From Salinirubrum litoreum (GTDB lineage: Archaea; Halobacteriota; Halobacteria; Halobacteriales; Haloferacaceae), in assembly GCF_020567425.1 (NCBI RefSeq), contig NZ_JAJCVJ010000005.1:1-64000 (forward strand): a stretch of DNA of 64,000 nt. Reading direction: 5' to 3'. The position numbers and the translations under genes are program-made. The notes below the pieces were generated by a model, which worked only from the letters and a program-made list of their open reading frames with translations, was not told the DNA's origin and ran no database searches. How positions within the stretch are numbered: position 1 is the first letter of the stretch; each line of letters begins with the position of its first letter. Positions 5,859 to 57,821 of the stretch are shown in pieces.

Positions 5859-5873
5859 TCAACTTCCAGCTCT

Positions 5874-8783
5874 ATGAGTATCGACTTCAAATCTGGCGAC
5901 CGCATCAGGCTCAACGGCGACCCAGCAGAAGTTATCCGCACCTACGAGGTCGGGAACCTCCCGTACCTCCGGGTCTACGTCGAGGGGGATGGTGCAAAGA
6001 CGGTGTGTCTTGACCACGTCTCCGTCGAACCAAGCAGTGATGCACTCGATACCCTCGAGGATCAAGTAGCAGACCTCCACCCCCGACACGAAGCAGTTTC
6101 GTCAGAGTGGTTCGACCTCCGAACCGAGGCCCTCCACCTCAAGATGGCCCACGAGCAGGGGCAGCTCCTGAGCATCTCGAACTCGCTCGTTCGCCTCGAA
6201 CCATACCAGCTCGCCTGCGTGAATCAGGTGATGCAGAAGCTCCGCCAGCGAGCGCTTATCGCCGACGACGTCGGTCTCGGGAAGACCATCGAGGCAGGCC
6301 TCATCCTCAAAGAACTCGAAGCCCGAAACCGAGCTAACAGCGTCCTCTTCCTCGTTCCCGCACACCTCCAGAAGAAGTGGATCCGGGATATGGAGCGCTT
6401 CTTCGACATCGACCTCACGGTTGCGGACCGCCAGTGGGTCGACGCCGAGCGTCGACGACTCGGCGAGGAGGCGAACATCTGGGACCAGGAGGGCCAGCGT
6501 CTAGTCACCAGCATGGCGTTCCTCCGACAAGACGAGTTCCAGCCCGAGATCGAGAACGCCTTCTGGGACGTCGCCGTCATCGACGAAGCGCACAAGGCCA
6601 GCAAGCGGGGCGAGTCCCCCAGCAAAACCTCGCTTATGGCCGAACGTGTTGCCAACCACTGTGAATCCCTGCTGTTGCTGAGTGCGACACCGCACGACGG
6701 CAAGGGGGAGGCATTCCGGTCCCTCATCAGCTATATCGATCCATTCCTCGTCGCCGAGGACCAGGACCTCACTCGAGAGACGGTGAACCGCGTCATGATT
6801 CGGCGCGGGAAGGAGACCATTTACGACGATAACGGCGAGCGCATCTTCCCCGAACGAGATGTCCAGACGGCCACCGTCTCGATGTCTCCTGCCGAGGAAC
6901 AACTGTACGAGCGCGTGACCGAGTACGTCCGCGAGGTCTACAACCGATCTGACCAATTGAACGAGCCCGCTGTCGGCTTTGCGATGGCGCTCATGCAAAA
7001 GCGGCTTGTGAGCAGCGTAGGCGCGATTCGAGAGACACTCCGGCGTCGCCTTCACGGACTGCTCGAACCCGACGAGCAGGGCCTCTCGACCGATGCGACG
7101 GCCTACCTCGAAGGCGAGGATTTGGAGGACTCTGACCGTGAACAGGCGGAGCAGGAACTCGAACGCCTCACGGTCGCCCAGGGTGATGAGGCGCTCCAGA
7201 AGGAGATCGACACGCTGCAGGAACTCGTCGCGATGGCCGAGGATCTTCCGGTCGACACCAAAGCGCGGAAAGTCAAGCGTTACATCGAGCAACTCTTTGA
7301 GGAGCATCCGGACGAGAAGCTCATTCTGTTCACTGAGTACCGCGATACGTTAGACTATCTCCTCGATCTCTTCGCCGACGAACCGTGGGCAGACGAGATT
7401 CTGACCATCCACGGAGATGTGAGTAAAGACGAGCGAACCCAGATCGAAGACGAATTCAACTACGGGAAGTCGCGATTACTGATGGCGACCGATGCGGCCA
7501 GCGAGGGGATCGACCTCCAGCACAGCTGCCACATCATGGTCAACTACGAACTCCCGTGGAACCCGAACCGCCTCGAACAGCGTATCGGTCGGATCCATCG
7601 CTACGGCCAGGACAAGGAGGTCAAGGTGTGGAACTTCCAGTTCGATGGCACTCGGGAATCCGAAATTTTCGATCTACTCCAAGACAAGGTTGAGGAAATC
7701 CGGTCGAAGGTCGGTGCGACGGCAGACGTCCTCGGGATGCTGGACGACGTCAACATCGACTCCCTCCTGATGAAATCCGTCCAGAGCCAGGAGCCAGCCT
7801 CGGCCACGAAAGAGGAACTTGAGGAGTTGATGGAAGAGCGTGAACAGACACTCCTCGAGTGGTACGAACGGAGCCTCATCGACTGCAGTACGTTCGACGC
7901 CGAGAGTCGACAAGAGATTCAGTCGATCGTCGACGACTCAGAGGACGTCTTCGGAAGTGAACAGGAGATCCGGGAGTTCTTCACTCGAGCGATCGAGGCG
8001 TTCGAGGGCTCTGTCGAGAAACGCGGAAACCAGTTGTACGAGGCGGAAGTCCCACCAGAAGTGACTGACAGCGGTCAGCCTGAGACGCTGGGTCCGTTCA
8101 CCTTCAGTCGAGATTTCGCCCTCGATCACGACGGAATCGAGTACCTCTCCCCTGATGCAGATGTCCTGCAGGCCCTCCGTGATCTGGTTCTCCAGCACGG
8201 ACAACACGCAGGGAAGACCGGAATGAAGCTGCTGCCGTTCGTCGACCAACCCGGCATTACATTTGTCTACAAAGTCGCCTTCGAAGATGCAACCGGCAAG
8301 ACGATTCGTGAGCAACTCATTCCCGTCTACGTCGACCTCGCTGGGCTTGACGCTCAGCGTTCACTCGGCCAGCGCGTCCTTGATGCAGAGACGGTTCACG
8401 CTCGTCCGGATGAGAGTACGGTCTCTCGGCTACTCAAGCAACGAGGCGACCTCGAGGACGCTGCCGAGAGGTACATCAGTAGTATGGTCGCCGACATCCG
8501 GGAAGATCTGCTCGAAAACCGTCAGCAGGACGTTCAGAAAGAACTCTCTGACTTGGAAGCCTATGAGCAAGCAGAACGAGATCGGATCCAGTCGTTCATC
8601 GATTCGTACGAACAAAAAGCAACAACGGGATCGGATATGCGCATCGCGATCCGGAACCAAAAACAACGTCTTGAGCAGCTGGAAACCCGGATAGAGTCAC
8701 GAAAGGCAGAGCTACAGAAGCGAGAACAGGTGATATCCCTTGCGCCAGACATTGAGGCGTACTGTCTAACGCTTCCGGTGTAG
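5874..8783 (+). CDS. brxHII: SNF2/HepA-type helicase, BrxHII-like
   Basis: 969 residues. Helicase motifs are in order: Walker A DDVGLGKTIEAG (about 130), DEAH box VIDEAHKASK (about 235), SATPHDGKGE (about 273) and motif VI QRIGRIHRYGQ (about 568). A long coiled-coil C-terminus is rich in E, Q and R. This is the RapA/HepA branch of SF2 (COG0553-like), the helicase type called BrxHII in BREX. A DrmD helicase of DISARM would look similar, but the BrxC-type ATPase across the promoter argues for BREX. The gene is GC-rich, unlike pglX. It is the last BREX gene on this strand; no pglZ follows it. Confidence 0.8.
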   Translation: MSIDFKSGDRIRLNGDPAEVIRTYEVGNLPYLRVYVEGDGAKTVCLDHVSVEPSSDALDTLEDQVADLHPRHEAVSSEWFDLRTEALHLKMAHEQGQLLSISNSLVRLEPYQLACVNQVMQKLRQRALIADDVGLGKTIEAGLILKELEARNRANSVLFLVPAHLQKKWIRDMERFFDIDLTVADRQWVDAERRRLGEEANIWDQEGQRLVTSMAFLRQDEFQPEIENAFWDVAVIDEAHKASKRGESPSKTSLMAERVANHCESLLLLSATPHDGKGEAFRSLISYIDPFLVAEDQDLTRETVNRVMIRRGKETIYDDNGERIFPERDVQTATVSMSPAEEQLYERVTEYVREVYNRSDQLNEPAVGFAMALMQKRLVSSVGAIRETLRRRLHGLLEPDEQGLSTDATAYLEGEDLEDSDREQAEQELERLTVAQGDEALQKEIDTLQELVAMAEDLPVDTKARKVKRYIEQLFEEHPDEKLILFTEYRDTLDYLLDLFADEPWADEILTIHGDVSKDERTQIEDEFNYGKSRLLMATDAASEGIDLQHSCHIMVNYELPWNPNRLEQRIGRIHRYGQDKEVKVWNFQFDGTRESEIFDLLQDKVEEIRSKVGATADVLGMLDDVNIDSLLMKSVQSQEPASATKEELEELMEEREQTLLEWYERSLIDCSTFDAESRQEIQSIVDDSEDVFGSEQEIREFFTRAIEAFEGSVEKRGNQLYEAEVPPEVTDSGQPETLGPFTFSRDFALDHDGIEYLSPDADVLQALRDLVLQHGQHAGKTGMKLLPFVDQPGITFVYKVAFEDATGKTIREQLIPVYVDLAGLDAQRSLGQRVLDAETVHARPDESTVSRLLKQRGDLEDAAERYISSMVADIREDLLENRQQDVQKELSDLEAYEQAERDRIQSFIDSYEQKATTGSDMRIAIRNQKQRLEQLETRIESRKAELQKREQVISLAPDIEAYCLTLPV

Positions 8784-8860: not shown

Positions 8861-9445
8861 ATGCCAGAGCTACGACGAGGGGTGAGGGTTATGCTCTTCG
8901 CGAGCTCCTACATCCCATTATTCCTGATTCTGGCAGCTATGTCGTATCCTATTCAGCTTACTCTCTATGGATTCGCCATACCCTGGGTTACGGGAGTGTT
9001 TCTTGCTCTCTGTATCATTCCACTCCCGCTCCCATTTCACATTATGCAGGTTCGCTCTACTGGAACCACCGACTACGAACCGGTCGAGGAATTCAGACAG
9101 CGAAATGATTTGGTGACTAGCTACCTCTTAGTATACGTTTTCACTTACCTCGGGCTCAATTACGCCGATTTAGTGAGCTGGCTTTCGTTTCTGATCTTCT
9201 TCAGTGTCGTCGCGATCATCCAGCTGCGCTCCGAGCAACTTCACGTCAATCCACTGCTCGCGCTTGCAGGATATGATGTCTACGAAGTAAAGATGGAGCG
9301 AGGGGTTCGTCTCGTCGTCAGCAAACGAGAATTGGAGGAGCAACTCGTCCCACCGGACGACTCAGACGGCGACCCCGATTACGCATCAGCCGAACGATAC
9401 CTTGAAATGGCTGAACTTGGCAATGGAGTATATATTACGGTGTGA
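8861..9445 (+). CDS. kwaA: KwaA-like membrane protein of a Kiwa defence system
   Basis: 194 residues with four predicted membrane segments (about 10-28, 34-60, 84-100, 103-121) and a cytoplasmic C-terminal tail. Its length, the SSYIPLFLI start of the first segment and the position directly before a DUF4868 gene match KwaA, the membrane partner of Kiwa. Kiwa acts at the membrane against phage infection through KwaB. The stop lies 4 nt before the kwaB start, so the pair is co-translated. It follows the BREX helicase by 77 bp on the same strand. On its own the sequence would only be a small membrane protein; the partner gene decides the call. Confidence 0.75.
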   Translation: MPELRRGVRVMLFASSYIPLFLILAAMSYPIQLTLYGFAIPWVTGVFLALCIIPLPLPFHIMQVRSTGTTDYEPVEEFRQRNDLVTSYLLVYVFTYLGLNYADLVSWLSFLIFFSVVAIIQLRSEQLHVNPLLALAGYDVYEVKMERGVRLVVSKRELEEQLVPPDDSDGDPDYASAERYLEMAELGNGVYITV

Positions 9446-9449
9446 CTGG

Positions 9450-10409
9450 ATGAGTTCAGAGGAACACGTTGACAGACTCGAACGCGCACTCGGCTTTCTC
9501 CGAAACGATCGCCGTACTTCGCAGTACCTTCTCGCTCAACAGGAGGACGACGACTACGAGTTCGGCATCGCCCCTCTCTCGTCGCCAATCCTAGATAAGG
9601 CCGAGATAATTCTGGAGGATACCCTGGAGAAAATGGTTTCGAGTGTGACCGAAGGCCCGAAAGACGTTACCGAGTTCTCCATCGCAAACACGAATCGGAA
9701 CATTACTCCCATTCAGTATCTTCCCGTCGACGATCTCCCAGAAGGTGCACGATTGGACTATCTCCTCACCGATCCAAACCTCAGTGAGAAAACGTACGAT
9801 GATTGGCCGAACCCTGGATTGCAAATCATCCGCATCAAGGAACCTAGTGGTACGCCACTTCTTGGACTACAAGAGTTTACGAACCACCAGGTGGTGGGGA
9901 GTAGCAAACCAATCTTGTTCTCTCGCGGCGAGCAGCAGTACGACGTCGTCGAAGATAGTCTGTTAACGATCCCGTCGAAAGTCAACGCAGTGTGCTTCGA
10001 CGGATTTGTCTACATCTACACGCCGAAGGCTTTTGAGCGGATGTATGATGTCCGGGGACAGTACCAACAACACACCGATGATGTGATCGATGGGCTTGCT
10101 GGGCAAGACATCGAAATCGCCGATCTCTCTATCGTCGATACATTCAAAAACGACATTCGGTGTCTGCGACGCATCCACGAGATCAAACGACACAATATTC
10201 ACGAGACCCTTGAACCGAGCGCCGTCATAGATGTCGTAGATGAGTACGATGTCCCCGTCATTGCGGAACAGCGAAATGGCTCATTGGTGCTTGACATTGA
10301 AGATGGGTCGAAACGTTGGAAGCTGCTCGATCTTCTGAGCGATAGTTATCTGAGATCGGATATGACCGAGAATCAGTACAATGCGCCAAACAAGCGGATG
10401 CTGGATTAA
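9450..10409 (+). CDS. kwaB: KwaB-like DUF4868 protein of Kiwa
   Basis: 319 residues from ATG 9450; an in-frame ATG at 9402 lies inside kwaA and gives an unlikely extension. The C-terminal signature KRWKLLDLLSDSYLRSDMT followed by a lysine-rich end is typical of DUF4868 proteins, and the length matches KwaB (about 315). KwaB is the DNA-binding effector of Kiwa and works with membrane-bound KwaA. No nuclease motif is obvious. The gene lies 4 nt after kwaA, and the region after it is non-coding up to the operator pair at 10510. Confidence 0.8.
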   Translation: MSSEEHVDRLERALGFLRNDRRTSQYLLAQQEDDDYEFGIAPLSSPILDKAEIILEDTLEKMVSSVTEGPKDVTEFSIANTNRNITPIQYLPVDDLPEGARLDYLLTDPNLSEKTYDDWPNPGLQIIRIKEPSGTPLLGLQEFTNHQVVGSSKPILFSRGEQQYDVVEDSLLTIPSKVNAVCFDGFVYIYTPKAFERMYDVRGQYQQHTDDVIDGLAGQDIEIADLSIVDTFKNDIRCLRRIHEIKRHNIHETLEPSAVIDVVDEYDVPVIAEQRNGSLVLDIEDGSKRWKLLDLLSDSYLRSDMTENQYNAPNKRMLD

Positions 10410-36329: not shown

Positions 36330-37190
36330 ATGTCTAGTAACAACTCGAGTCGCAAGGTCGTTACGGTGGATGAACAGGCATTCGAACGAACCGAGGACGC
36401 CGACGTCGATGAGAACGGCTTCGAAGTCGTCGACGACAAGCCGGAGTTCCGGGCGACGGTGCAGCAGGAAACGCAGGCAAAGGTGGATTCCAACCACCCA
36501 GACGGCATCGTCCAGGACTTCTCGCACCTGCCCCTCGCGCAGGAAGAGAAGATTCGCGCCCGGGAAGCCGAACTGGCCCACATCAGCGCCCAGGCGGAAC
36601 TGGGCACCCAGGAGGGCCGGGCGAAGCGGACTCGCGAGGTCGTCACCGAACGGCGGCAGCGCAAGCGGGAGGAACGCACCCCCGAGCGGACGGATCCGCG
36701 CGAACGCCTCTCCCGGATGGAGCTGGCGAAAGTGAATCAGGAAGCAGACCGGATGGCACAGCGGCTTTCCACCGGTCACAGTCGGGCGGCCGTCTCGCGG
36801 GCGCTCGCAAAGCGGGTCGCCAAGGGGCAGGACATCACCAAAGCAGTGTTCGACACGATGGACGCACTCAAGGCCGCCCCCGGCGCCATCTGCCCAATCG
36901 AGGACGTCCCGGACGTGCAGACCAACGAGGTGAGCATTGAAGGTGAGGTGATCACCCTCTGGGAACCCAGTAGCCCGAAGATAGAACAAGTCGGTCTCAT
37001 CGCCGATGATACTGACCGAATCAAGTTCACCAGCTGGGTGAAATCCGAGCCTCGGATCGTCCGCGAAGGTGAGAAGGTCCGGATGCGCGCGCTCAAGAAG
37101 AACTGGCATCAGGGGCGCTGTTCCCTGGCCGTGACCTACGACAGTATGATCGTCTTCCCAGAGCGCGACCGCCGCTGGTGGGAAGAATAG
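36330..37190 (+). CDS. OB-fold-like DNA-binding protein
   Basis: 286 residues from ATG 36330. A disordered acidic N-terminus is followed by a strongly basic helical segment (about 115-150, rich in R and E) and a C-terminal beta-rich domain (about 200-286, TNEVSIEGEVITLWEPSS, IKFTSWVKSE, KVRMRALK) with the strand pattern of an RPA-type OB fold. It probably binds single-stranded DNA. It sits behind a hairpin-rich region, and a T7 run follows the stop. Confidence 0.65.
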   Translation: MSSNNSSRKVVTVDEQAFERTEDADVDENGFEVVDDKPEFRATVQQETQAKVDSNHPDGIVQDFSHLPLAQEEKIRAREAELAHISAQAELGTQEGRAKRTREVVTERRQRKREERTPERTDPRERLSRMELAKVNQEADRMAQRLSTGHSRAAVSRALAKRVAKGQDITKAVFDTMDALKAAPGAICPIEDVPDVQTNEVSIEGEVITLWEPSSPKIEQVGLIADDTDRIKFTSWVKSEPRIVREGEKVRMRALKKNWHQGRCSLAVTYDSMIVFPERDRRWWEE

Positions 37191-37207
37191 GAGGACCAAG
37201 TGCCCTC

Positions 37208-37214
37208 TTTTTTT
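37208..37214 (+). terminator. T7 run after the OB-fold gene
   Basis: Seven T residues 18 nt after the stop codon. Archaeal termination needs a U-rich tract, so this is a likely terminator. Confidence 0.5.
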
Positions 37215-37311
37215 AGTGAGTGCCGGACCAACCCAAGCCCCGCCGCCCCGCCCACCGCTCCGTGCTCACTCCCTTCGGTCGTTGCGCGCGCAGCCACGAC
37301 CTCAATAAAAA

Positions 37312-38997
37312 TCAAGCCCGTCGCTCCAATCGTATGTCCATCCCTTTCTCTTCAAGACTGTATAACCGCTGGCTGAATTTCTCATACTCTTGGTCGGTCA
37401 TCTGAACGATGTGCTCACCAACATCAGAGCCGTGCATCACACGACCTGCACGCTGAAGCTCCTGTCGGCGAGATCCACCGTGGAATTGGTACTCAATAAC
37501 CCGATCAAGATTCTCAAGAGATACGCCTTCATCAGCAACGCGTGAGCCTATCACTACACGGTTTTCTTCAAAGATCTCCATACGCTCTTCTTTGGGTGTA
37601 TCTCCATATACGAACGGGACATCCAGTTTGTCGGAGAGAGCCTTTCCAGCTTCAATCCCGTCGCAGAAAATTAGTGTCTCCCCGACCCCCTCGTCTACCA
37701 ATTGTACGATGTCTTCTCGCTTGTCTTCTTCCGTTTGATAGAGGAAGACATCAACTTCCGGAAATTCAAGATCACCGTATTCCAGCATTTCACGCCAATC
37801 AATACCTACAGGAATGCCAGTCAGAGCAAAGATGTAGTCTGTTCGTGCATCTTCCCGGTACGGGGTGGCACTACAGCCAATTCGATAGTCGGTATCCAGA
37901 GTGGAAAGGGACGAGTAGGTATCCGCTGGAAGCGTATGGCACTCGTCAAAGATCGTTAGTTTTGGAGAATCCTCCCCCTGATAGTCCTGGAGATTTCCTT
38001 CCCGGGTTAGGTATTGATACGTCCGAACTTCCCACTTCCACGATTTATCACAGTGTTCGCGGATTCGTCTTTCCCACTGAGCTTCGAGAGTAGAGCTCGG
38101 GACAACAACGAGTTTATTCCCATCAATTCGTTCCCCAGCGTAGAGACCAAAGAAGGTCTTCCCAAGCCCTGGTGGCCAGTAGACACCCACCTGCCCTGTC
38201 TCGCGGAACTTCTCCCAAGCACGTCTCTGATATGAACGTAATTCTATGTTCTCTGGCTCCTCAAGGAGCTCACTCTCATCGATGGGCTGAGCAGCGAAAG
38301 GAAGATTTCCATTCTTGATGAGTTTCGCAATGATATCGAACTCTTTGCCGCGTTGAATTTTGATTTTATTATCGTCTACTCTCTCGTGTAATCCACCGTC
38401 TTCACCCCCGAGGTCTCTCCAAGCTCGGTCACGCTCTTCCTGATCGCTAAGTTCGAGGGTCCCATCCTCAACGAGAGCATGATCGTACCGACGCCCCAAA
38501 TCGATTTTATCTCGGATTAGATCGGGTATATCCTCGATCCAGTTGACGTACTTGTTGATGATAAACGTCTGCCAGGCATCGTCCTGTTCGCGAAGATGAC
38601 CAACAGAGAATGGAACAAACCGAGGAACGATAACGTAGTACTCGTTTTCATCTTTAGGGAGTAACTTGTAGGGTTGTCGAGCGAACGCTGCCAGATGTTC
38701 AGTATTCAGTTCAGTTAGATCAAGATACTCTCGGAGCTGATCTACGATTTCTGTCGCAGCTTCGTAATCAGATTGGAACCATACTGCTTGTCGACCCCCG
38801 AGGTCAATTCGCTCCAAATCCCCCTCATCTACTAAAATACTCAGCTTATTTCGAGCGGTCTGACCAGTACAGTTGTACTCTCGAGCAACCATTTTACTCG
38901 TCACGAAGGGGATTTCTAGTTCATCAAAGAGGTCTACTACATCCTCAGGGGTTACTTGTTCTTCTACAGGTGGGGAATCAGAATCTTGCGAGCTCAT
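37312..38997 (-). CDS. XPB/Rad25-like SF2 helicase with N-terminal winged helix
   Basis: 561 residues from ATG 38997. A winged helix lies at about 15-75 (VTSKMVAREYNCTGQTARNK). The helicase motifs are PPGLGKTFFG (about 270), DECHTLPAD (about 347), GCSATPYRED (about 376), a VIGSRVADEGVSLE motif and QELQRAGRVMHG (about 515). The order and the short C-terminus resemble archaeal XPB-type translocases. It is divergent from a five-gene operon of winged-helix proteins across a 282-bp repeat-rich region. The pairing suggests one functional unit in which the small proteins deliver or control the motor on DNA. Base composition is lower in GC than nearby genes. Confidence 0.8.
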   Translation of the reverse strand: MSSQDSDSPPVEEQVTPEDVVDLFDELEIPFVTSKMVAREYNCTGQTARNKLSILVDEGDLERIDLGGRQAVWFQSDYEAATEIVDQLREYLDLTELNTEHLAAFARQPYKLLPKDENEYYVIVPRFVPFSVGHLREQDDAWQTFIINKYVNWIEDIPDLIRDKIDLGRRYDHALVEDGTLELSDQEERDRAWRDLGGEDGGLHERVDDNKIKIQRGKEFDIIAKLIKNGNLPFAAQPIDESELLEEPENIELRSYQRRAWEKFRETGQVGVYWPPGLGKTFFGLYAGERIDGNKLVVVPSSTLEAQWERRIREHCDKSWKWEVRTYQYLTREGNLQDYQGEDSPKLTIFDECHTLPADTYSSLSTLDTDYRIGCSATPYREDARTDYIFALTGIPVGIDWREMLEYGDLEFPEVDVFLYQTEEDKREDIVQLVDEGVGETLIFCDGIEAGKALSDKLDVPFVYGDTPKEERMEIFEENRVVIGSRVADEGVSLENLDRVIEYQFHGGSRRQELQRAGRVMHGSDVGEHIVQMTDQEYEKFSQRLYSLEEKGMDIRLERRA

Positions 38998-39279
38998 TGA
39001 AATCCGCCTATTCTCGCGTTTTTGGCTATAGCAAAATAAGGGTTTGGGTATAGCAAATTGCGAGAGAGACGCGCCAGAGAATCTACCTATCGGATCCACT
39101 ATTCGCGTCCCGAATGGAAGGCCTGCTGACTACGCTATAGCAAGGTCATATAGCGTATTATGCTGCTGCAGATAGGACGGGGGTCAGGCATTATACAAAT
39201 AGGGCAGGCAGATAGAGTTGGAGCATACGCATAAGACGAAGGGCATAATTATTAGTATCAGGGCATAATAAAGTGGCAT
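38998..39279. promoter_or_regulatory. Repeat-rich divergent promoter region
   Basis: Contains TATAGCAA three times (39027, 39049 and 39136), a related ATATAGCGTATTATGC at 39149, and direct repeats GGGCATAAT at 39241 and 39261 just before the start at 39280. TATA-like TATACAAAT lies near 39193. The layout suggests a regulator bound to both sides. Confidence 0.5.
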
Positions 39280-40089
39280 ATGCAGGACAACCTCATCGAG
39301 AAGGCAAGGAAGTACATCGACCTGCAAGAGACTAAGCAAGAAAAACAGAACAAGCTTCGAGATCTCCAGAGTGAGATGTTCGGAGAGGGTTCAGAGGAGA
39401 CAGAAAAGAAAGCTCGTGAGTTCTTCTCCGACGTCGGAGGAGGCGAGCAACAGTCTACCAAAACCCAGGAGATCGACGAGCTTCGGCAAGACCTCTCTGA
39501 GCTTGAGGAGACCTTAGAAACCACACGAGAGGAACTCCAAGAGCTTCTAGTTGATGTCCAATTCCCGTTGAATGAAACAATCGACGTAGAGGATGAGGAA
39601 GTCGTTTTCCCCTACTCTGACGAGATCCCACAGGAGGTTATTGATGCGATTGAGTCCGTGTTAGAGGAAGATCTCAGCAAGGAGGGGGTCATAATTGAGA
39701 CAGACGCAATCCGCGTCGAAACAGCCGATGTTGATGGGGCAATGGATCAGGCCATGAGCCGTATTCAGGAACTTCGGTCTAAAGCCAATATGATGGTCGA
39801 TGTGGAACAGTATGTCGACGATATCAACAGTCGCGATGAAAAAATAGTGAAGACACTATACGTCCTCTACAAATCGGATAACCCACTCAGTAAAAAAGAG
39901 ATTGAGGAACGAATTGGAGTCGACTCCGGGGATCTCCGGGGAACTCTTTACTACGTCTTAGACAACGATCCGTATCTGAAGAAGTCCGACTCTGAGTTCT
40001 CACTAAGTGACATGGGTCGACGGGTCATAGAGGCCTATATCGAGCAGCATGGGTCTCCGGAGGATCTGCCTGAGGGGGTGGAAGCATGA
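39280..40089 (+). CDS. Coiled-coil winged-helix protein, module gene 1
   Basis: 269 residues. Coiled-coil stretches (about 1-40 and 60-100) and a middle domain precede a clear C-terminal winged helix (about 185-255, KIVKTLYVLYKSDNPLSKKE, then PYLKKSDSEFSLSDMGRR). The wing sequence PY-x-K/R followed by xFSLS and G is shared by all five proteins of the operon. This one lacks the middle WLxxxVI block and the acidic tail of the other four, so it is the most distant member. It overlaps the next gene by 4 nt (ATGA). Confidence 0.7.
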   Translation: MQDNLIEKARKYIDLQETKQEKQNKLRDLQSEMFGEGSEETEKKAREFFSDVGGGEQQSTKTQEIDELRQDLSELEETLETTREELQELLVDVQFPLNETIDVEDEEVVFPYSDEIPQEVIDAIESVLEEDLSKEGVIIETDAIRVETADVDGAMDQAMSRIQELRSKANMMVDVEQYVDDINSRDEKIVKTLYVLYKSDNPLSKKEIEERIGVDSGDLRGTLYYVLDNDPYLKKSDSEFSLSDMGRRVIEAYIEQHGSPEDLPEGVEA

Positions 40090-40922
40090 GCGAAAACGCG
40101 TCCGAGAGATCTATCGAGGCTCTTGCTGAGGAATATCTCTCTGCACAGGAGCAGGAAACAAATCCGGAGGATCTCGAGGAAGCAAAGGCGCATCTAACAG
40201 AGCTTCAAGAACGGTACGAACGATTCGAGAACGATTATGCAGAGTCAGACCCAGCAACGCAGCAGTTATCCGACCGAATCAGTGAGACTGAGGAACGAAT
40301 TGCTGAACTTGAGGAAGCACAGCGCATCCCAGAGGAACTCAAGGAGCAAATTCTAGAGGAAGCCACGGGATTCATGCTTACAGAGGAATGGTTGGATCCG
40401 GATGTCATCGAGGCGTTGAATCTGGCCCTCATCGGTGAGCATGACTCCGCATTAGTTATAGAGGAGATCGAAATTTCCGGTCCAGATGACGTCGATGATC
40501 TCGACGATATCACTCGATTCGATATTATCGATGTGGTTCGCAAGCTCGCTCTGGACAAACTTGAGAGAACGAACGAGATCGAAGAAGTCTGGGGATCGAT
40601 AGCGGATACCACCAAGGAAGAACCATTCGAGATCGTCGCTCAGCTCGGTCGAGCAACTCCCGACGAGGTCGTCGAGCGTGTGGACGACGATGAGGTTGAC
40701 CGTGAAACCATCAGTAATCGTTTGAGAAACGCCACCAGGCTTCAAATTAATCCGTATTTCCGTGAAGACGGGGTCTACCAGCTATCTACAGCAGGAAGAC
40801 ACCTCGCGCAGAGATACGCCGAGATTCCTGAAGATGTCGAGGAAAGCGCTCAACAGGAGGGCGAGAGTCAGGCAACTCTCGGACAAAATACCGCTGAGCA
40901 GGGAGGTGATGATGATGACTGA
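40086..40922 (+). CDS. Coiled-coil winged-helix protein, module gene 2 (type A)
   Basis: 278 residues. N-terminal helix with ALAEEYLSAQ, a long coiled coil (about 25-95), a middle helical block with EEWLDPDVIEALNLALIGE and a C-terminal winged helix ending PYFREDGVYQLSTAGRH. The acidic tail contains QATLGQ. It is closest to the protein encoded two genes on (41726-42571). A strong Shine-Dalgarno GGGAGGTG (40901-40908) for the next gene lies in its last codons. Confidence 0.7.
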   Translation: MSENASERSIEALAEEYLSAQEQETNPEDLEEAKAHLTELQERYERFENDYAESDPATQQLSDRISETEERIAELEEAQRIPEELKEQILEEATGFMLTEEWLDPDVIEALNLALIGEHDSALVIEEIEISGPDDVDDLDDITRFDIIDVVRKLALDKLERTNEIEEVWGSIADTTKEEPFEIVAQLGRATPDEVVERVDDDEVDRETISNRLRNATRLQINPYFREDGVYQLSTAGRHLAQRYAEIPEDVEESAQQEGESQATLGQNTAEQGGDDDD

Positions 40923-41733
40923 TGATCTCCCTGAGGGAATCGTGGAACTAGCTAAGGCTTATCTCGAAAGCCACGACAGCGATGATACCATTGACGACGA
41001 GTCAGAGATAGAAGAAAATCTCGAGTACTGGCGAGAGCAGGTCGAAGAGTTCGAGGAAGGAACGCCGATGTACGAGATGGCAGTCGAGGAACGAGACAGC
41101 TACCAAGAAAAGTACGATGAAATCTCTGAACAAGATGAGCGGCGTTCGGAGCTCCGTGACGAGCTTTTGACGCGTGCAAGCTCAGAATTCGCTCCTCAAG
41201 GAGACTGGATGAATGAGACGGTGATTTCCGCTCTTACGCACGCAATCGTCGGGCAGCAACGGGATCGAATCCTGATTGGCGATTATTCGTTACCCAATGA
41301 TGCGGATGAGCTTTCAAAACGTGAGATGGTGACGGTGGCCAAAAATGTCCATGCTGTCGCTGAGGAAATCGTCGTATCGAATGGCTCTCTCGACGAGGTT
41401 TGGGAGATGATGAGTACCGATAAGCGCTCTCCCATTACAAAAGTCCTTGCTGAGGAGAAGGAATTAGTCAGTAGTGGGGATATCAGCGCCCAGCTGGGCG
41501 ACGGCGGAACTGATAATCCTGGTGCCAACCTCCGTTACGTTCTCAACTCTGCAGAATATTATCCTTACTACCGGGAAGACGGGGATTGGAGACTCTCTCT
41601 CCTTGGCGAAGTCGCGTGGCAAACGCGTGGGTTGGATGATGTAGAGGATGATGAGAGTAGCCATGATAGTGAAGAGACGGATCAACAATCCAGCTTAGAT
41701 GAGCTCGATAACGGGGGTGGCTCCGATGAGTGA
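40915..41733 (+). CDS. Coiled-coil winged-helix protein, module gene 3 (type B)
   Basis: 272 residues if the third of three consecutive ATGs (40909, 40912, 40915) is used, 6 nt after GGGAGGTG. It begins LPEGIVELAKAYLES; the middle block is WMNETVISALTHAIVGQ and the wing PYYREDGDWRLSLLGE. The tail ends QSSLDELDNG followed by acidic residues. It is closest to module gene 5. The last codons overlap the next gene by 8 nt. Confidence 0.7.
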   Translation: MTDDLPEGIVELAKAYLESHDSDDTIDDESEIEENLEYWREQVEEFEEGTPMYEMAVEERDSYQEKYDEISEQDERRSELRDELLTRASSEFAPQGDWMNETVISALTHAIVGQQRDRILIGDYSLPNDADELSKREMVTVAKNVHAVAEEIVVSNGSLDEVWEMMSTDKRSPITKVLAEEKELVSSGDISAQLGDGGTDNPGANLRYVLNSAEYYPYYREDGDWRLSLLGEVAWQTRGLDDVEDDESSHDSEETDQQSSLDELDNGGGSDE

Positions 41734-42571
41734 GGATCGCCAGGAGCCGGAATCACTCGCTAAGGAGTATTTGGAGGCCATAGATCAAGAAATCGATGAA
41801 GAGCGACGTAACGAATTAGAAGATACCAAAGAGGAATTACAAGACCGTCGTGAAAAGTACGTCTCACAGCATGGCGAAGATAGCAGAATCGTCCAGCGTG
41901 TAGACCAGAAGATCGAGGATATTGAGGCCGAACTAGATGATCTGAATGAGTCGGCCCAGCAAGTAGACGAGCTTCGAACTCAGCTACTCAAGGCAGCCAA
42001 AGACAGGCTTGAATTTAATCGAGAATGGCTTTCTACGACCGTTTTAGAAGGTCTAACACACGCAATGTATGCAGAGAAGGATGATCACCTGATTCTGGAC
42101 CAGACCCGAATCGAAGGTCCGGGGGATCTGGACGAAATTGAGGATCTCGCACAGTTGGACATGGAGCACACATTCCTACTGCTCGTAGAAGACCGCCTGG
42201 GGGAGACAGATACCGTTAGCGAGCGTTGGGATCGACTTACAGACTCGAAGTATCATAAACCGTTCTTAGTTGTCTCCCGTGAGGGGACTGCATCTCCTGA
42301 TGACGTACTCCCCAACCTCAGCGAAGATGCAGATCGCAAAGATGCCAAAAATTGGTTAGAACGACCTCTCTATAATTGGGACGACCTCGTTCCATACTAC
42401 CGGGCAGGCAACGGTGAATTCGGACTTTCAACCTCTGGTAAATATTTCGCCCATCACTATGCAGGGTCTGCTGAAAGCCTCGCTGAAAAGGGAGACGGAG
42501 GGGATGACAGTGACGATGGGCAAGCAAGTTTGAACGATTTGGGAGGTAACGGGGGTGACTCCGATGAGTGA
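41726..42571 (+). CDS. Coiled-coil winged-helix protein, module gene 4 (type A')
   Basis: 281 residues. It starts with ESLAKEYLEA, matching module gene 2; coiled coil about 20-95, middle block WLSTTVLEGLTHAMYAE, then IEGPGDLDEIEDLAQ, which matches SGPDDVDDLDD of gene 2. The wing is PYYRAGNGEFGLSTSGKY. The tail contains QASLNDLGG. It overlaps both neighbours by 8 nt. Confidence 0.7.
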   Translation: MSEDRQEPESLAKEYLEAIDQEIDEERRNELEDTKEELQDRREKYVSQHGEDSRIVQRVDQKIEDIEAELDDLNESAQQVDELRTQLLKAAKDRLEFNREWLSTTVLEGLTHAMYAEKDDHLILDQTRIEGPGDLDEIEDLAQLDMEHTFLLLVEDRLGETDTVSERWDRLTDSKYHKPFLVVSREGTASPDDVLPNLSEDADRKDAKNWLERPLYNWDDLVPYYRAGNGEFGLSTSGKYFAHHYAGSAESLAEKGDGGDDSDDGQASLNDLGGNGGDSDE

Positions 42572-43427
42572 TGAAGAACAGACTCACCCGAAAGAAGATG
42601 ATGCAATACCTGAGGATATTGTAGAGCTCGCTGAGGAGTATCTGGACCTAATTGTTGGCGAGGAAACTGACACCGAATCAGATGAACGGGATCTGGAGGA
42701 GCTAAAAGAAGAGGTCGAGCAGTGGAACAGAGAACTAGAATCCCTCGATGAAGATGATGAACTCTATGCTATTGGTGTCGAGGAGCGGGACAACCTCAAA
42801 CGACGTATCGAAGAACGCAATCAAACCGAAAAGCGGCGTGAGCAAATACGTCAGGAATTGGTAGAACGAACCGCTTCAGAATTTGTTGCACGCGACCAGT
42901 GGCTCGACACATCCGTAATCAAGGCAATCACACACGAACTCTTGGGCGAAGCACGAGAAGAGATCTTAGTAGACGAATACCGTCTACCAGGTGCAGAATT
43001 AGATAATAAATCACTCTTCGCCGTATCAAGGAATATCCGGGCGGTCGCCAGCCACACGAGTAGCTCTGATGAACGTATCTCGAATCTCTGGGATAGCATC
43101 GATGGAACCCGGCAATATCCGATCGTGAAGGTGTTGTTCGACTCAGCTGAGTTGCTGGGCCCGAGCGGGATTGCCGATGAAATCCAGGATGAGGATCGGG
43201 ACCGAAGGCATATCGGTGACGCTCTTGGAAAGATGAGGGATCGACAGTATCACCCCTATTTCAGAGGGGATGATGGCTATGCGCTGTCACTCGTCGGTGA
43301 ATACGTTTGGAAAGAGTTCGGTCCTGACGTCAAGGAGGATTCGGAGGAAAGTTCCACCGAGGAAAGAGAGGATAATGGAGAAGATGATTCACCCGATTCT
43401 GAATTGACCAATTTCCAAGACGATTGA
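42564..43427 (+). CDS. Coiled-coil winged-helix protein, module gene 5 (type B')
   Basis: 287 residues. It starts IPEDIVELAEEYLDL, matching module gene 3; the middle block is WLDTSVIKAITHELLGE, then LPGAELDNKSLFAVSRNIRA against ELSKREMVTVAKNVHA of gene 3. The wing is PYFRGDDGYALSLVGEY. The tail is acidic and ends SELTNFQDD. It is the last gene of the operon. Confidence 0.7.
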   Translation: MSDEEQTHPKEDDAIPEDIVELAEEYLDLIVGEETDTESDERDLEELKEEVEQWNRELESLDEDDELYAIGVEERDNLKRRIEERNQTEKRREQIRQELVERTASEFVARDQWLDTSVIKAITHELLGEAREEILVDEYRLPGAELDNKSLFAVSRNIRAVASHTSSSDERISNLWDSIDGTRQYPIVKVLFDSAELLGPSGIADEIQDEDRDRRHIGDALGKMRDRQYHPYFRGDDGYALSLVGEYVWKEFGPDVKEDSEESSTEEREDNGEDDSPDSELTNFQDD

Positions 43428-43454
43428 TTTCGAGGAATCTCTCTGAATTGTTGG

Positions 43455-43485
43455 TTTCTTACCCCCCTGAATAGGTGAGGGGCTC
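43455..43485 (+). ncRNA. Leader hairpin motif (copy 4), before TFB
   Basis: Arms CCCC and GGGG enclose a loop with TGAATAGGTGA; TTTCTT precedes. It ends 34 nt before the TFB start at 43520. Confidence 0.5.
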
Positions 43486-43519
43486 GTCGCCAAAGCGAGT
43501 CCTGAAATTGGTGAGAACA

Positions 43520-44440
43520 ATGGCAACCAGAGACATCTACGAAACTGGCTTCGACGAAGACGTCCAAACGGAGTCGAACGCAAACCAGTGTCCCGAGTGC
43601 GACGGACACGTCACTACGAACGCGGTCGAAACGATCTGCGAGGACTGTGGCCTCGTTATCGAGGAACAACGTATCGATCACGGGGCAGAGTGGCGAGCGT
43701 ACGATGCGGACGAGCGCGAGCGAACAGGCGCACCACTGACTGCAGCCCGTCACGATCGGGGTCTCTCAACGGAGATGGGCCGCGGAACCGATGCACACGG
43801 GAACGAACTCTCTGGTCAGAAACGCCGGCGGCTGGCCCGGATGCGGCGCGAACAGACCCGTGGCCGGTGGCGGTCCAAAGCGGAACGGAATCTCGCACAC
43901 GGGTTGGGCGAGGTACGCCGGCTGGCGAGTACGCTCGAACTCTCCGAGTCGATTCGTGACCAAGCCTGTCAGCTCTTCCGGAGCGCTCAGAGCGAGGATC
44001 TGCTTCGTGGCAGATCCATCGAAGCCATCGGTGCAGCGAGCATCTACGGTACCTGCCGATGTAACCAACACCCGCTCCTCCTCGAGGATGTCGTCGACGC
44101 CGCCAGAGTCGAGTCCACTCGTGTCACCAACGCCTACCGAACACTGAATCGCGAATTAGAGCTCCCAGCACCACCAATGCGCCCGACGTCGTTCGTTCCG
44201 CGGCTGATCTCGGAGCTGGAGTTAGACCACGACATTCGCCGACGCGCGAACGAACTCGCAGAATGCGCCGAGGGGACAGCCCTCACGAACGGCTGTCAGC
44301 CATCGGGCGTCGCGGCCGCCTGCGTCTATCTGGCCGCCCAGGAGCAGGGCGCGTTGATTACCCAATCTACCGTCGCGTCGGCAGCAGAGGTGTCAGTCGT
44401 GACGCTCCGAAGCCGGCGAGACGAACTCCAAGCGATCTGA
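43520..44440 (+). CDS. tfb: Transcription initiation factor TFB
   Basis: 306 residues from ATG 43520. An N-terminal zinc ribbon (CPEC and CEDC, about residues 24-45) is followed by the B-finger/linker region and two cyclin repeats (GRSIEAIGAASIYGTCR near 165-185 and QPSGVAAACVYLAAQ near 255-275). TFB recruits RNA polymerase to TATA promoters. Haloarchaea carry several TFBs; a plasmid-borne one could redirect transcription to accessory genes. Compared with chromosomal TFBs the linker looks Arg-rich. Confidence 0.92.
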   Translation: MATRDIYETGFDEDVQTESNANQCPECDGHVTTNAVETICEDCGLVIEEQRIDHGAEWRAYDADERERTGAPLTAARHDRGLSTEMGRGTDAHGNELSGQKRRRLARMRREQTRGRWRSKAERNLAHGLGEVRRLASTLELSESIRDQACQLFRSAQSEDLLRGRSIEAIGAASIYGTCRCNQHPLLLEDVVDAARVESTRVTNAYRTLNRELELPAPPMRPTSFVPRLISELELDHDIRRRANELAECAEGTALTNGCQPSGVAAACVYLAAQEQGALITQSTVASAAEVSVVTLRSRRDELQAI

Positions 44441-53055: not shown

Positions 53056-54420
53056 CTAAATGATGCCGCCGATGGCGAGCAGGCCGACGACGAGCAGCAG
53101 CGTCGCGACCACACACCCTCCAGCGAGCAACTTGTTCTCCATCGCCTTCTCGTGGAGTGGCATTGCGGCGTATTCCTCGCGGAACGCCTCGAGGTTGTCC
53201 TCGTCGTAGAAGTACTTCGTCTTCAGCGCGAACCGTTTGGTGACCGCACAACCAGTACAAACCGGCTCGCCTTCCAACCGTTCCGTTTTGGTGTGGCTGT
53301 TGCAGGCGATGGCCCCGCAGTTCGGACAGTAGGTGTACGTCCCATCGACGCCGCTCGTGTCACAGTGGACGCACCGATGGATGCCGTCCTCGTCTGTTAC
53401 TCTGGACGGCCCTGCCGCGTAGTACTCGTAGGGGTAGGTGTACTCCTGGAGTTCCGTCGTCTGTCGAACCTCGGGAAGGTACACCGGTTCGATCGACTGG
53501 ACCGAGATATCCGAGCGGTTCGGCTCGCAGGTCTTGTTGTAGGTGACGTTGTTGTCGCCGGTGTAGGTGACCGTCGTCGTGTGGTGCTGCTGGAGCCGCT
53601 CGACGGCCCACTCTTTGTACTCGGTCTGCGTCTGGCCGAACCGGTTCTCCTCAACGTCGTCGAACACCTCCGCGAATTGCTCGGTGTCGAGATCGACCGT
53701 CGCGTGGAGGTTCTCCGTGACCAACGTCGCGACGTCCTCGTCGACGACCTGCGGCTGCCCGCGTTCGGCGCGGGCGACGAATCGAGTCCGGTCGTTGATC
53801 CGGTGGATGACGCCCACCGACGTCTCGAAGACAGCGTTCGTGTCGGCGGTGACCGCGACCACCGGGCGGAACGTCACCGCCGAATGTGGTTCTGGGAGGT
53901 CAGTGGCCTCAATGTTCTCGATGTCGCGGAACGCCTCCGCGACGGCCGCGTCGACGTCGGCGGCCGGGTCGTACGGCCGTAGTGTCTCGTCACAGAGGAT
54001 CTCGATGCGGCCGTTGTAGAGATCGAGACCGATCTCGTCGGCGATCTCCCGGAGGCTCTCGCCGTCGAGCAGCTCGATGGGATGGGGATCATCGTTCTGC
54101 TGGAGACGCTGGGCGTACTCCTGAGCAGGGTTCGTGAACCGGCCGGTCGTCACGACCATGCCGCGTTTCGGGCCGTCGAAGTCGAACGTCGCGATCGCCG
54201 AGTGGAGCTTCTGGACGACCGGCCGCCCCACCGTCCCGGTGTGCTTGCACTCCACGATGATCGCGCGCCGGGTGCCGTCGACGACTTCCTCCATGATGAC
54301 GTCCCGCCCCTCGTCGGCGGTTCGCTCGGCCTGACGGACGTTCTCGTAGCCGAGGTTGCGGAACACGTCCTCCATCACGTCCTCGAACTCGAACCCTGAG
54401 AGATCGTCCAGTACAGCCAT
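53056..54420 (-). CDS. Mrr-type restriction endonuclease with zinc ribbons and a membrane anchor
   Basis: 454 residues from ATG 54420. The N-terminal Mrr_cat fold has GYENVRQAERTADEGRDVI (active-site Asp) and IIVECKHTG (E-x-K), then QKLHSAIATFDFDGPKRGMV. The middle region is beta-rich. A C-terminal zinc region (CVHCDTS, CPNCGAIACNSH, CTGC, about 345-405) precedes a single membrane segment (about 435-452). Mrr enzymes cut methylated DNA. A membrane anchor could place it at the site of DNA entry. Confidence 0.78.
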   Translation of the reverse strand: MAVLDDLSGFEFEDVMEDVFRNLGYENVRQAERTADEGRDVIMEEVVDGTRRAIIVECKHTGTVGRPVVQKLHSAIATFDFDGPKRGMVVTTGRFTNPAQEYAQRLQQNDDPHPIELLDGESLREIADEIGLDLYNGRIEILCDETLRPYDPAADVDAAVAEAFRDIENIEATDLPEPHSAVTFRPVVAVTADTNAVFETSVGVIHRINDRTRFVARAERGQPQVVDEDVATLVTENLHATVDLDTEQFAEVFDDVEENRFGQTQTEYKEWAVERLQQHHTTTVTYTGDNNVTYNKTCEPNRSDISVQSIEPVYLPEVRQTTELQEYTYPYEYYAAGPSRVTDEDGIHRCVHCDTSGVDGTYTYCPNCGAIACNSHTKTERLEGEPVCTGCAVTKRFALKTKYFYDEDNLEAFREEYAAMPLHEKAMENKLLAGGCVVATLLLVVGLLAIGGII

Positions 54421-54482
54421 CCGGATATACCTGGACAGTACGTTGCAACTGTCAAATACGTTGCCGAACACAGCTACGTCCT

Positions 54483-56252: not shown

Positions 56253-56330
56253 CGGAACATTCGGGGATGTCTGTCGGAGCCTTAGTAGATGAAGGATCGA
56301 ATGATTGACCCACCGTATTAGGGTTTGGAA

Positions 56331-56357
56331 TATTATAGTTCAGACTATTATAGTCTG
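56331..56357. promoter_or_regulatory. Palindrome upstream of the DUF234 ATPase
   Basis: CAGACTA-TTA-TAGTCTG (56341-56357) is an exact 7-bp dyad. TATTATAG occurs twice in it (56331 and 56346). It lies about 50 bp before the start, overlapping the likely promoter. Confidence 0.55.
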
Positions 56358-56382
56358 GTTCCTAACTTCGGAGCACATATGT

Positions 56383-56405
56383 ACCTCCCGCTACGACCGG
56401 GAGGT
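56383..56405 (+). promoter_or_regulatory. Hairpin directly before the ATPase start
   Basis: ACCTCCCG and CGGGAGGT are exact 8-bp arms with a 7-nt loop, ending at the base before ATG 56406. The 3' arm contains GGAGG, so folding would hide a Shine-Dalgarno sequence. If translation starts at ATG 56379 instead, the hairpin is inside the coding region. Confidence 0.5.
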
Positions 56406-57821
56406 ATGGACCAGTTCGTCAATCGTATCGATGAACTCGATCGGTTGCAGACCCTCTATGAGAGTGGCACTGCAGAACTCGCAATCATTTATGGGCGCCG
56501 CCAGATCGGCAAGAGCGAACTCGTCCGCCAATCGATTGCCGACCGCGACGATGCCGTGTACTATCAGGCAGTCCAAGGGACAGCGACGACACAGCTCAGG
56601 CGATTCGTCGAGGCAGCAGCGTCGACCTATCCCGACATCACGGCCGTCAAAGAGGAGTGGGAACCGCTCTTAACGTACCTCACCGACAGAGACGCCGTCA
56701 TCGTCATCGACGAATTTCCGTACCTCATCGAATCGAACGAGGGACTTCCCTCGGTCATTCAACATCTGTGGGATACAGCTATCGACGAGAGTCAGGCGAC
56801 GCTCGTCCTCACAGGCTCTGCAATCGGCATGATCCATACCCACGTCCTCGATGGCGGTGCGCCACTCTACGGACGGGTGTCCCAGACACCGAATGGCCGC
56901 CTCGAACTCGCCCAGCTGCCGTTTCGCTCCATCCAAGAGTTCGTGCCGACGTACGATCCCGAAGAACGGGTGTTCGTCTATGGCGTCTTCGGCGGCACAC
57001 CCCGATATCTCAGCCCGCTCGATCCATCACAGAGCCTCGGAGAGAACATCACGCGGCTGCTGTGCGACCCGGATGGTCCACTCCACGACGAGCCCGAAAC
57101 CGTCCTCCAGATGGAACTCAACGAGGTGAACACGTATTTTTCGGTTCTAGAGTCGATGGCCAGCGGGAACCGCAGTCGAAACGAGATCGCTCAGGGAGCC
57201 GGCATCGAGAGCACCAACACGTCGTACTACTTCGACCGGCTGGAAACCCTCCAGATCATCGAGAAACATCATCCGGCACTCGCCGATCCGGCGCGCAGCA
57301 AGCGGACTCGATACAAGATTCGAGATCCCGTATTCCGGTTTTACTTCCGGTATCTCTACGGCCGCGGAGGACAGTACGAACTCTACGGCGAGAACGCCTA
57401 CGCGGATCTCATCGAACCGGAATTGCCCGACTTCGTCAGCGAAACGTTCGAATCGCTCTGTCACCAGGCGGTGCCGGCGCTCTATGCAGACTACCAGCTC
57501 ACACAGGTGCCAAGCCAGTGGTGGTACAAGGGCCAGGAAGTAGATGTCGTCGCACCAACTGACGAGTCAACGCTGATCGCTGGCGAAGCGAAATTTACCA
57601 ACACCCCCCTCGGCTATGACGTGCTCGCGGACCTCGAAGACGACGTGGAGCAAATCGATTGGACACCCACCGGAGGTGGCGAGCCGACGTATGAATTCGC
57701 CTTGTTCAGCCGCTCCGGGTTCAAACGCTCCGTCGAGGAAGCTGCAGACGAGCGTGATGATCTCCGGCTATTCGATCTCTCCGATATCGTTGCCATTCTC
57801 GAGAGTGGAACCACCCATTAA
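56406..57821 (+). CDS. Archaeal ATPase with DUF234 C-terminus
   Basis: 471 residues from ATG 56406 (MDQFVNRIDELDRLQ), the usual start of this family; ATG 56379 would add nine residues. Walker A is IIYGRRQIGKSELV (near 30-45) and Walker B VIVIDEFPYL (near 100). A winged helix follows (NEIAQGAGIESTNTSYYFDR), and the C-terminal DUF234 nuclease-like domain includes WWYKGQEVDVVAP and LIAGEAKFT, which look like the D and E-x-K residues of a PD-(D/E)xK fold. These ATPases are abundant in archaea and linked to mobile DNA. Confidence 0.8.
   Translation: MDQFVNRIDELDRLQTLYESGTAELAIIYGRRQIGKSELVRQSIADRDDAVYYQAVQGTATTQLRRFVEAAASTYPDITAVKEEWEPLLTYLTDRDAVIVIDEFPYLIESNEGLPSVIQHLWDTAIDESQATLVLTGSAIGMIHTHVLDGGAPLYGRVSQTPNGRLELAQLPFRSIQEFVPTYDPEERVFVYGVFGGTPRYLSPLDPSQSLGENITRLLCDPDGPLHDEPETVLQMELNEVNTYFSVLESMASGNRSRNEIAQGAGIESTNTSYYFDRLETLQIIEKHHPALADPARSKRTRYKIRDPVFRFYFRYLYGRGGQYELYGENAYADLIEPELPDFVSETFESLCHQAVPALYADYQLTQVPSQWWYKGQEVDVVAPTDESTLIAGEAKFTNTPLGYDVLADLEDDVEQIDWTPTGGGEPTYEFALFSRSGFKRSVEEAADERDDLRLFDLSDIVAILESGTTH

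What the first reader, a model, noticed from the sequence alone, without database searches (positions are those of the whole stretch)
37312..43427. Candidate new module: XPB-like helicase opposite five coupled coiled-coil/winged-helix proteins
Seen: a helicase with its own N-terminal winged helix is divergent from five overlapping genes whose products all end in the same wing signature (PY-x-R/K, then a strand, then LS and G). The block has distinct, lower-GC composition and sits among mobile and defence genes. Known: XPB-type motors need partner proteins and nucleases. Inference: the five proteins form a hetero-oligomeric DNA-recognition or clamp assembly for the helicase, in a defence or DNA-repair system I cannot name.
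Basis: partly seen in the sequence, partly recalled or inferred. Interest (0 to 1): 0.88.

Follow-up and report, generated by a model that had tools for sequence, protein, structure and literature searches.

The report
Mobile five-paralogue haloarchaeal coiled-coil operon
A salt-loving archaeon's plasmid carries a compact operon of five related, previously undescribed proteins that travels between genomes as cargo, often beside antiviral genes; the helicase next to it turns out to be a separate passenger, and the operon may be a new kind of archaeal immune module that attaches to the DNA replication clamp.

Summary
The sequence description holds: an XPB-like helicase lies opposite five coupled genes, all paralogues (A, B1-B4) built as coiled-coil hairpin, small middle domain, winged helix. 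The unity with the helicase does not hold. The A-B operon occurs as A+B+B, A+B+B+B or A+B1-B4 in four other intact haloarchaeal loci without this helicase (one more is a remnant). The helicase's closest relatives (42-65% identity) occur without the operon. The two share a cassette only here and in one near-identical relative. The operon is mobile cargo: in Salinigranum it is the only intact gene set in a 5.6-kb tRNA-Gly island; in Halobacterium it lies inside an Hma/Fic/HEC-05 defence island; here it fills a plasmid slot (RPA-like...TFB) that holds DISARM in another plasmid. It matches no family in Pfam, NCBIfam, PADLOC or PHROGs. The B proteins end in acidic disordered tails with a conserved Q-x-[ST]-[LF] or L-x-x-F motif resembling the PCNA-binding tails of the same genome's FEN1 and PolB, though never a canonical PIP box. 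Best reading: a stand-alone, nuclease-free, hetero-oligomeric defence-type module that may dock on the replication clamp. Module independence is well supported; defence is inferred from location; clamp docking is speculative.

The parts
39280..40089 (+). Gene A (269 aa): long coiled-coil hairpin, small alpha/beta middle domain, C-terminal winged helix; first gene of the operon in every locus
   Evidence: model pLDDT 71; orthologues 42-70% identical in four other haloarchaea
40086..40922 (+). Gene B1 (278 aa), 'odd' clade: coil hairpin, middle domain, winged helix, acidic tail with QATLGQN
40915..41733 (+). Gene B2 (about 272 aa), 'even' clade; tail QSSLDEL
   Evidence: upstream ATGs at 40909 and 40912 also possible
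41726..42571 (+). Gene B3 (281 aa), 'odd' clade; tail QASLNDL
   Evidence: AlphaFold2 model pLDDT 86, coil 24-93, winged helix about 160-245, disordered 247-280
42564..43427 (+). Gene B4 (287 aa), 'even' clade; tail SELTNF
39230..39279 (+). Probable operon promoter region (GGGCATAATTATTAG; GCATAAT-type elements also lie close to the A start in Hbt, G291 and Salinigranum)
   Evidence: by eye, not tested statistically
37312..38997 (-). XPB-like helicase (561 aa) with N-terminal HTH-like region; neighbour in the same cassette, probably not part of the A-B module
39021..39144 (.). Three TTTGG[C/G]TATAGCAAA-type repeats, operator-like, on the helicase side of the divergent intergenic region
36330..37190 (+). 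Left border of the cargo slot: plasmid DNA-binding protein, annotated replication factor A / OB-fold in some relatives
43475..44440 (+). Right border of the cargo slot: TFIIB-family protein (TFB)

Best explanation
The five genes are one self-standing, horizontally mobile module, separate from the helicase. Subunit A and alternating 'odd' and 'even' B subunits, all paralogues, probably assemble through their coiled-coil hairpins into a hetero-oligomer with several winged helices and no recognisable enzyme. It is carried as cargo in plasmid slots and integrated islands where antiviral systems are kept, so it most likely protects its host or its plasmid from competing mobile DNA. The disordered acidic tails carry a PIP-like motif, so the complex may dock on PCNA and act on replicating DNA, for example by blocking or marking foreign forks. 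Shown here: the module, its independence, mobility, domain layout and tail motif. Inferred: defence role, oligomer. Speculative: PCNA docking and the fork-level action.
For: Independence: A-B operons without this helicase in four other intact loci. Close helicase relatives (E<=1e-50) occur in 4 of 381 genomes and gene A (E<=1e-30) in 6 of 391; the overlap is only G000 and G045, which share one recent cassette. Synonymous divergence between those two copies is 16/375 for the helicase and 45/182 for B3. Mobility: Salinigranum 5.6-kb island with 49-nt tRNA-Gly repeats, broken integrase, four intact A-B genes; integrase next to the operon in L066. Defence setting: inside an Hma-like/SoFic/HEC-05 island; 1.6 kb from KwaA/KwaB-like genes in G291; the window slot holds DISARM (DrmA, DrmC, DrmE) in pHTIA and an LmuB-like ATPase in Haloplanus rallus. 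Subunits: the B tree has two clades and B1-B2-B3-B4 alternate odd, even, odd, even; the minimal QS_9 operon has A plus one of each. Tails: Q-x-[ST]-[LF] in 12 of 17 tails against 0.27 expected after shuffling; the own genome's FEN1 ends QTGLDRWT and its PolB QTGLGSFM.
Against: No tail has the full canonical PIP box Q-x-x-[LIM]-x-x-aromatic-aromatic (0 of 17). Window A has no tail motif. The tails come from related proteins, so counts are not independent. No functional data; genes in defence islands and cargo slots can be anything, and other plasmids fill the same slot with potassium transport or capsule genes. Winged helices are net acidic. Salinigranum has only 'odd' B subunits, so the odd/even pairing is not universal. 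Only about 1-2% of sampled haloarchaea carry the module, so the locus sample is small.
Confidence: 0.45

Rival explanations
1. One reading: helicase and five proteins form one system, the five acting as DNA-recognition or clamp assembly for the XPB-like motor.
For: Divergent neighbours; between the window plasmid and G045 the whole cassette is 90-99% identical while the flanks are about 82%, so both moved together at least once.
Against: Operon without this helicase in four other intact loci and helicase relatives without the operon in three. Helicase and operon differ several-fold in synonymous divergence between the two copies.
Confidence: 0.12
2. A plasmid or island maintenance module: TubR-like winged-helix proteins bind a centromere-like site and hold or partition the element, or cap its replication.
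For: Best solved winged-helix neighbours include TubR (Z 9.8) and a pNOB8 centromere-binding protein (Z 8.3), though tied with MarR proteins. Found on plasmids and integrated elements.
Against: No partition NTPase in the operon. In Salinigranum the operon is intact while the integrase is broken, and it sits in the chromosome where partition is not needed. No shared array of binding sites was seen upstream of A across loci.
Confidence: 0.2
3. A set of transcription regulators controlling host or element genes (MarR/RosR-like winged helices with dimerising coils).
For: Fold matches to MarR, RosR and PhiH1-repressor-like proteins. The N-terminal half (coil plus middle domain) is also fused to REC-HalX response regulators (L048).
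Against: Three to five co-translated paralogous regulators with no conserved target gene beside them is unusual; neighbours differ in every locus. The conserved tail motif is unexplained.
Confidence: 0.15
4. A sub-question to the best explanation: the tails bind something other than PCNA, for example one another's winged helix or another host factor, and the PIP resemblance is coincidental.
For: Aromatic pair missing; tails with Q mostly have L, I or M or no hydrophobic residue where PIP boxes carry aromatics.
Against: Same Q-x-x-L core as host FEN1 and PolB tails; where Q is missing, F is present at L+3, as in PolB L-G-S-F. The H. volcanii PCNA pocket is shallower and thought to tolerate deviations (PMC2737543).
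Confidence: 0.5

Closest known systems
XPB / archaeal XPBII helicase (with Bax1 nuclease)
   Same: Helicase 37312-38997 has the XPB-type motor: ERCC3_RAD25_C 5.9e-13, XPBII best solved relative, RED motif (ATPYREDARTD) present
   Different: 98 bits against the 610-bit cut-off of the XPB equivalog; a different N-terminus shared with haloarchaeal plasmid helicases; no Bax1-like gene recognised beside it
Haloarchaeal plasmid DEAD/DEAH helicases (Haloterrigena, Natronorubrum)
   Same: Roughly 25-29% identity over nearly the whole length
   Different: Located beside ParA and, in one case, Orc1 genes, with no A-B operon
DISARM, BREX, Hma, Kiwa, CBASS
   Same: Share cargo slots or islands with the A-B operon or the helicase
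   Different: No sequence relation of A or B to any component beyond weak coil matches
MarR / RosR / TubR winged-helix proteins
   Same: Winged-helix fold at the C-terminal third (Z 8.5-9.8)
   Different: Extra N-terminal coil hairpin, middle domain and motif-bearing tail; three to five tandem paralogues
PCNA-interacting tails (FEN1, PolB, NreA)
   Same: C-terminal Q-x-x-L core on a flexible tail (PMC4929162)
   Different: Lacks the aromatic pair; located a few to about 20 residues before the C-terminus in several members

Membership tests
XPB DNA repair helicase | Score above NCBIfam XPB equivalog cut-off | tested here: not met
   98 of 610 bits
XPB DNA repair helicase | XPB-type C-terminal motor and RED motif | tested here: met
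   PF16203 above cut-off; RED seen in the translation
XPB DNA repair helicase | Bax1 nuclease partner encoded nearby | tested here: inconclusive
   None recognised among neighbours by family scan and reading; no Bax1 profile search was run
Known anti-phage defence system (PADLOC) | A or B proteins match a system component over their length | tested here: not met
   Only weak partial, mainly coiled-coil matches, E >= 2.9e-4
Known anti-phage defence system (PADLOC) | Located in defence islands or slots | tested here: met
   not in every locus
Known anti-phage defence system (PADLOC) | Protects against virus or plasmid | not testable with these tools
   Needs a challenge assay
PIP-box PCNA-interacting proteins | Q-x-x-[LIM]-x-x-aromatic-aromatic | tested here: not met
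   0 of 17 tails
PIP-box PCNA-interacting proteins | Relaxed core Q-x-x-[LIMF] near a disordered terminus | tested here: met
   12 of 17 tails, 1.82 expected; tail disordered in the B3 model
PIP-box PCNA-interacting proteins | Binds PCNA | not testable with these tools
   Peptide or pull-down assay needed
TubR / MarR winged-helix DNA-binding proteins | Winged-helix fold | tested here: met
   Z 8.5-9.8 over 76-87 residues
TubR / MarR winged-helix DNA-binding proteins | Same family (common descent) | tested here: inconclusive
   Many tied folds; no Foldseek E-value below 0.001

The most novel reading that the evidence does not exclude
A nuclease-free archaeal immune complex of tandem paralogues that docks through several PIP-like tails onto the replication clamp and uses its winged helices to stop foreign replicons at the fork: clamp-directed immunity.
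Probability: 0.2. Interest if true: 0.87.

Novelty: categorically new. Interest (0 to 1): 0.6.

Why it matters
The protein set matches no described family in four libraries, yet it is kept as a unit across haloarchaeal families and moves as cargo with antiviral systems. A 2026 survey found archaeal antiviral defence poorly characterised (PMC12988326). If the operon is defence, it lacks any recognisable enzyme and may work by occupying the replication clamp, a mode not described for archaeal immunity to my knowledge. It gives a clear, testable five-gene (or three-gene) unit for Haloferax genetics, and a marked plasmid slot (RPA-like to TFB) in which to look for more systems.

Tried and rejected
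Profile scans of A and B in Pfam, NCBIfam, PADLOC and PHROGs gave only weak, mainly coiled-coil matches. Sequence search of solved structures gave only coil matches (KIF21A). Foldseek of A and B models: no E below 0.001. Viral contigs, phage and plasmid collections: no relatives found with the A or B queries tried. Alignment A1 was too diverse for the degenerate-pattern scan. Idea that A-B belongs to Hma: rejected, other loci lack Hma. Idea that the helicase is required: rejected on distribution. The PbeA match of the helicase (8e-16) is a shared helicase domain, not evidence of a phosphorothioate system. Papers found on haloarchaeal or archaeal defence gave no description of this operon.

Full report
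WHAT IS THERE. The window is bases 1-64000 of a 97,490-bp contig of a haloarchaeal genome, probably a plasmid. The helicase (37312-38997, minus strand) and five genes (39280-43427, plus strand) are real ORFs. The five overlap by 4, 8, 8 and 8 nt, and the junctions before B3 and B4 share the sequence CTCCGATGAGTGA. All six genes evolve under purifying selection relative to the copy in G045 (pN/pS 0.10-0.18). GC falls to 48-52% in the block.

THE FIVE ARE PARALOGUES. I call them A (first gene) and B1-B4. A and B profiles align collinearly over 216 columns (hhalign probability 96.9, E 1.5e-10). The B3 model is confident (mean pLDDT 86): helical hairpin 24-93, middle domain to about 156, winged helix about 160-245, disordered tail 247-280. 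The A model is weaker (71) but has the same layout. The winged helix resembles TubR, MarR and RosR (Z 8.5-9.8, tied rows). No enzyme-like conserved residue set is evident in the alignments; this is a judgement by eye.

OTHER LOCI. Profile searches over about 390 genomes of the class and 147 relatives found A in G045 (near-identical cassette), Halobacterium sp. TGN-42-S1 (G147, L065), G291 (L064) and MAG QS_9_68_17 (G367, L066), and a truncated A in G342 (L067). B copies revealed Salinigranum salinum (G075, L046). Composition: A+B1-B4 (window, G045, G291), A+B1-B3 (Halobacterium), A+three B (Salinigranum), A+two B (QS_9). The B tree has two supported clades; B1 and B3 are in the 'odd' clade, B2 and B4 in the 'even' clade, and QS_9 has one of each. 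This fits duplication of an odd-even pair after gene A; Salinigranum, with odd members only, is an exception.

THE HELICASE IS A SEPARATE PASSENGER. None of the four other intact operon loci has the helicase beside it; in their genomes the best match is 32% identical and on another contig (G291). Its near relatives, 60% (G338), 65% (Halobacterium pKBTZ01, where the gene is split) and 42% (G034), lack A/B genes nearby. In G338 it lies near a CBASS-type cyclase with a 2TM effector, so the helicase too moves in defence surroundings. Between the window and G045 the cassette is 90-99% identical while its flanks are about 82%, so the two units did travel together once, but their synonymous divergences differ several-fold (16/375 for the helicase, 45/182 for B3), which points to separate exchange.

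MOBILITY AND SURROUNDINGS. In Salinigranum the operon lies between tRNA-Gly and a 49-nt, 96% identical copy of its 3' part, 5.6 kb away; the integrase between them is broken, and a 72-aa ORF looks to me like an Orc1/Cdc6 C-terminal remnant (not tested), while the four A-B genes are intact. In QS_9 an integrase precedes the operon. In Halobacterium it sits between SoFic and HmaC-like genes on one side and HmaB-like and HEC-05 genes on the other. In G291, KwaA/KwaB-like genes start 1.6 kb away and a type IIG enzyme lies within the same stretch. In the window the block fills the interval between an RPA-like gene and TFB. From the coordinates, at least 20 plasmids have both genes in the same order with 1.4 to 14 kb between them; 12 of these intervals were opened. 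Contents differ: DISARM in pHTIA, an LmuB-like ATPase, a restriction endonuclease, TGT plus CARF, a Schlafen-type protein, but also potassium transport and capsule genes. Location therefore suggests, and does not prove, defence.

THE TAILS. Sixteen B tails and the QS_9 A tail share a short motif in an otherwise variable acidic stretch: Q-x-[ST]-[LF] in 12 of 17 (0.27 expected from shuffles of the same tails), and in the other five an L-x-x-F. Among about 300 genes called in the fetched loci, the Q form was found in the last 45 residues of 14, all but one of them in this family, one of those being the wing of an A protein. The host's FEN1 ends QTGLDRWT and its PolB QTGLGSFM, which are PIP-type tails (definition in PMC4929162). 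None of the 17 is a canonical PIP box, so the clamp idea stays a hypothesis. The H. volcanii PCNA pocket is described as shallower and probably tolerant of deviations (PMC2737543).

MECHANISM. Shown: paralogous set, layout, conserved operon, mobility, independence, tail motif. Inferred: a hetero-oligomer (distinct subunits retained, coils) and a protective function (surroundings, intact genes in a decayed island). Speculative: PCNA docking and action on foreign forks.

NOVELTY. No known family or system was matched at family level. I rate the kind as categorically new because nothing described groups these proteins; this says what the protein set is not, and the function is unproven.

Noticed in passing
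window 1623-8783: BREX genes PglX (full-length match, 1980 bits) and BrxHII (1637 bits).
   Followed up: partly
window 8861-10409: KwaA/KwaB-like pair (Kiwa) directly after the BREX genes; the same pair lies near the A-B operon in L064.
   Followed up: partly
window 53059-54471 and 56325-57818: PDC-S02/Mrr-like restriction protein and a PDC-S27-like protein.
   Followed up: no
window 36330-44440 and loci L024-L028, L110-L116: RPA-like to TFB interval is a recurrent cargo slot in haloarchaeal plasmids; in pHTIA it holds DISARM.
   Followed up: partly
L047 4117-4692, L048 8446-9375, L049 9547-10038, L050 13959-14924: The N-terminal half of B (coil plus middle domain) also occurs alone and fused to REC-HalX response regulators, in some cases beside hybrid kinases and type IV pilus genes.
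   Followed up: partly
L118 8819-10210: 60% identical helicase relative in a chromosomal island with a CBASS-type cyclase, 2TM effector, HEC-06-like and MkoA-like genes.
   Followed up: partly
L110 2874-9975: Slot of plasmid pCBA1229 holds a distant XPB-like helicase with several small paralogous HTH-like proteins of unknown function.
   Followed up: no
window 39021-39144: Three TATAGCAA-type repeats with palindromic cores upstream of the helicase, operator-like.
   Followed up: no
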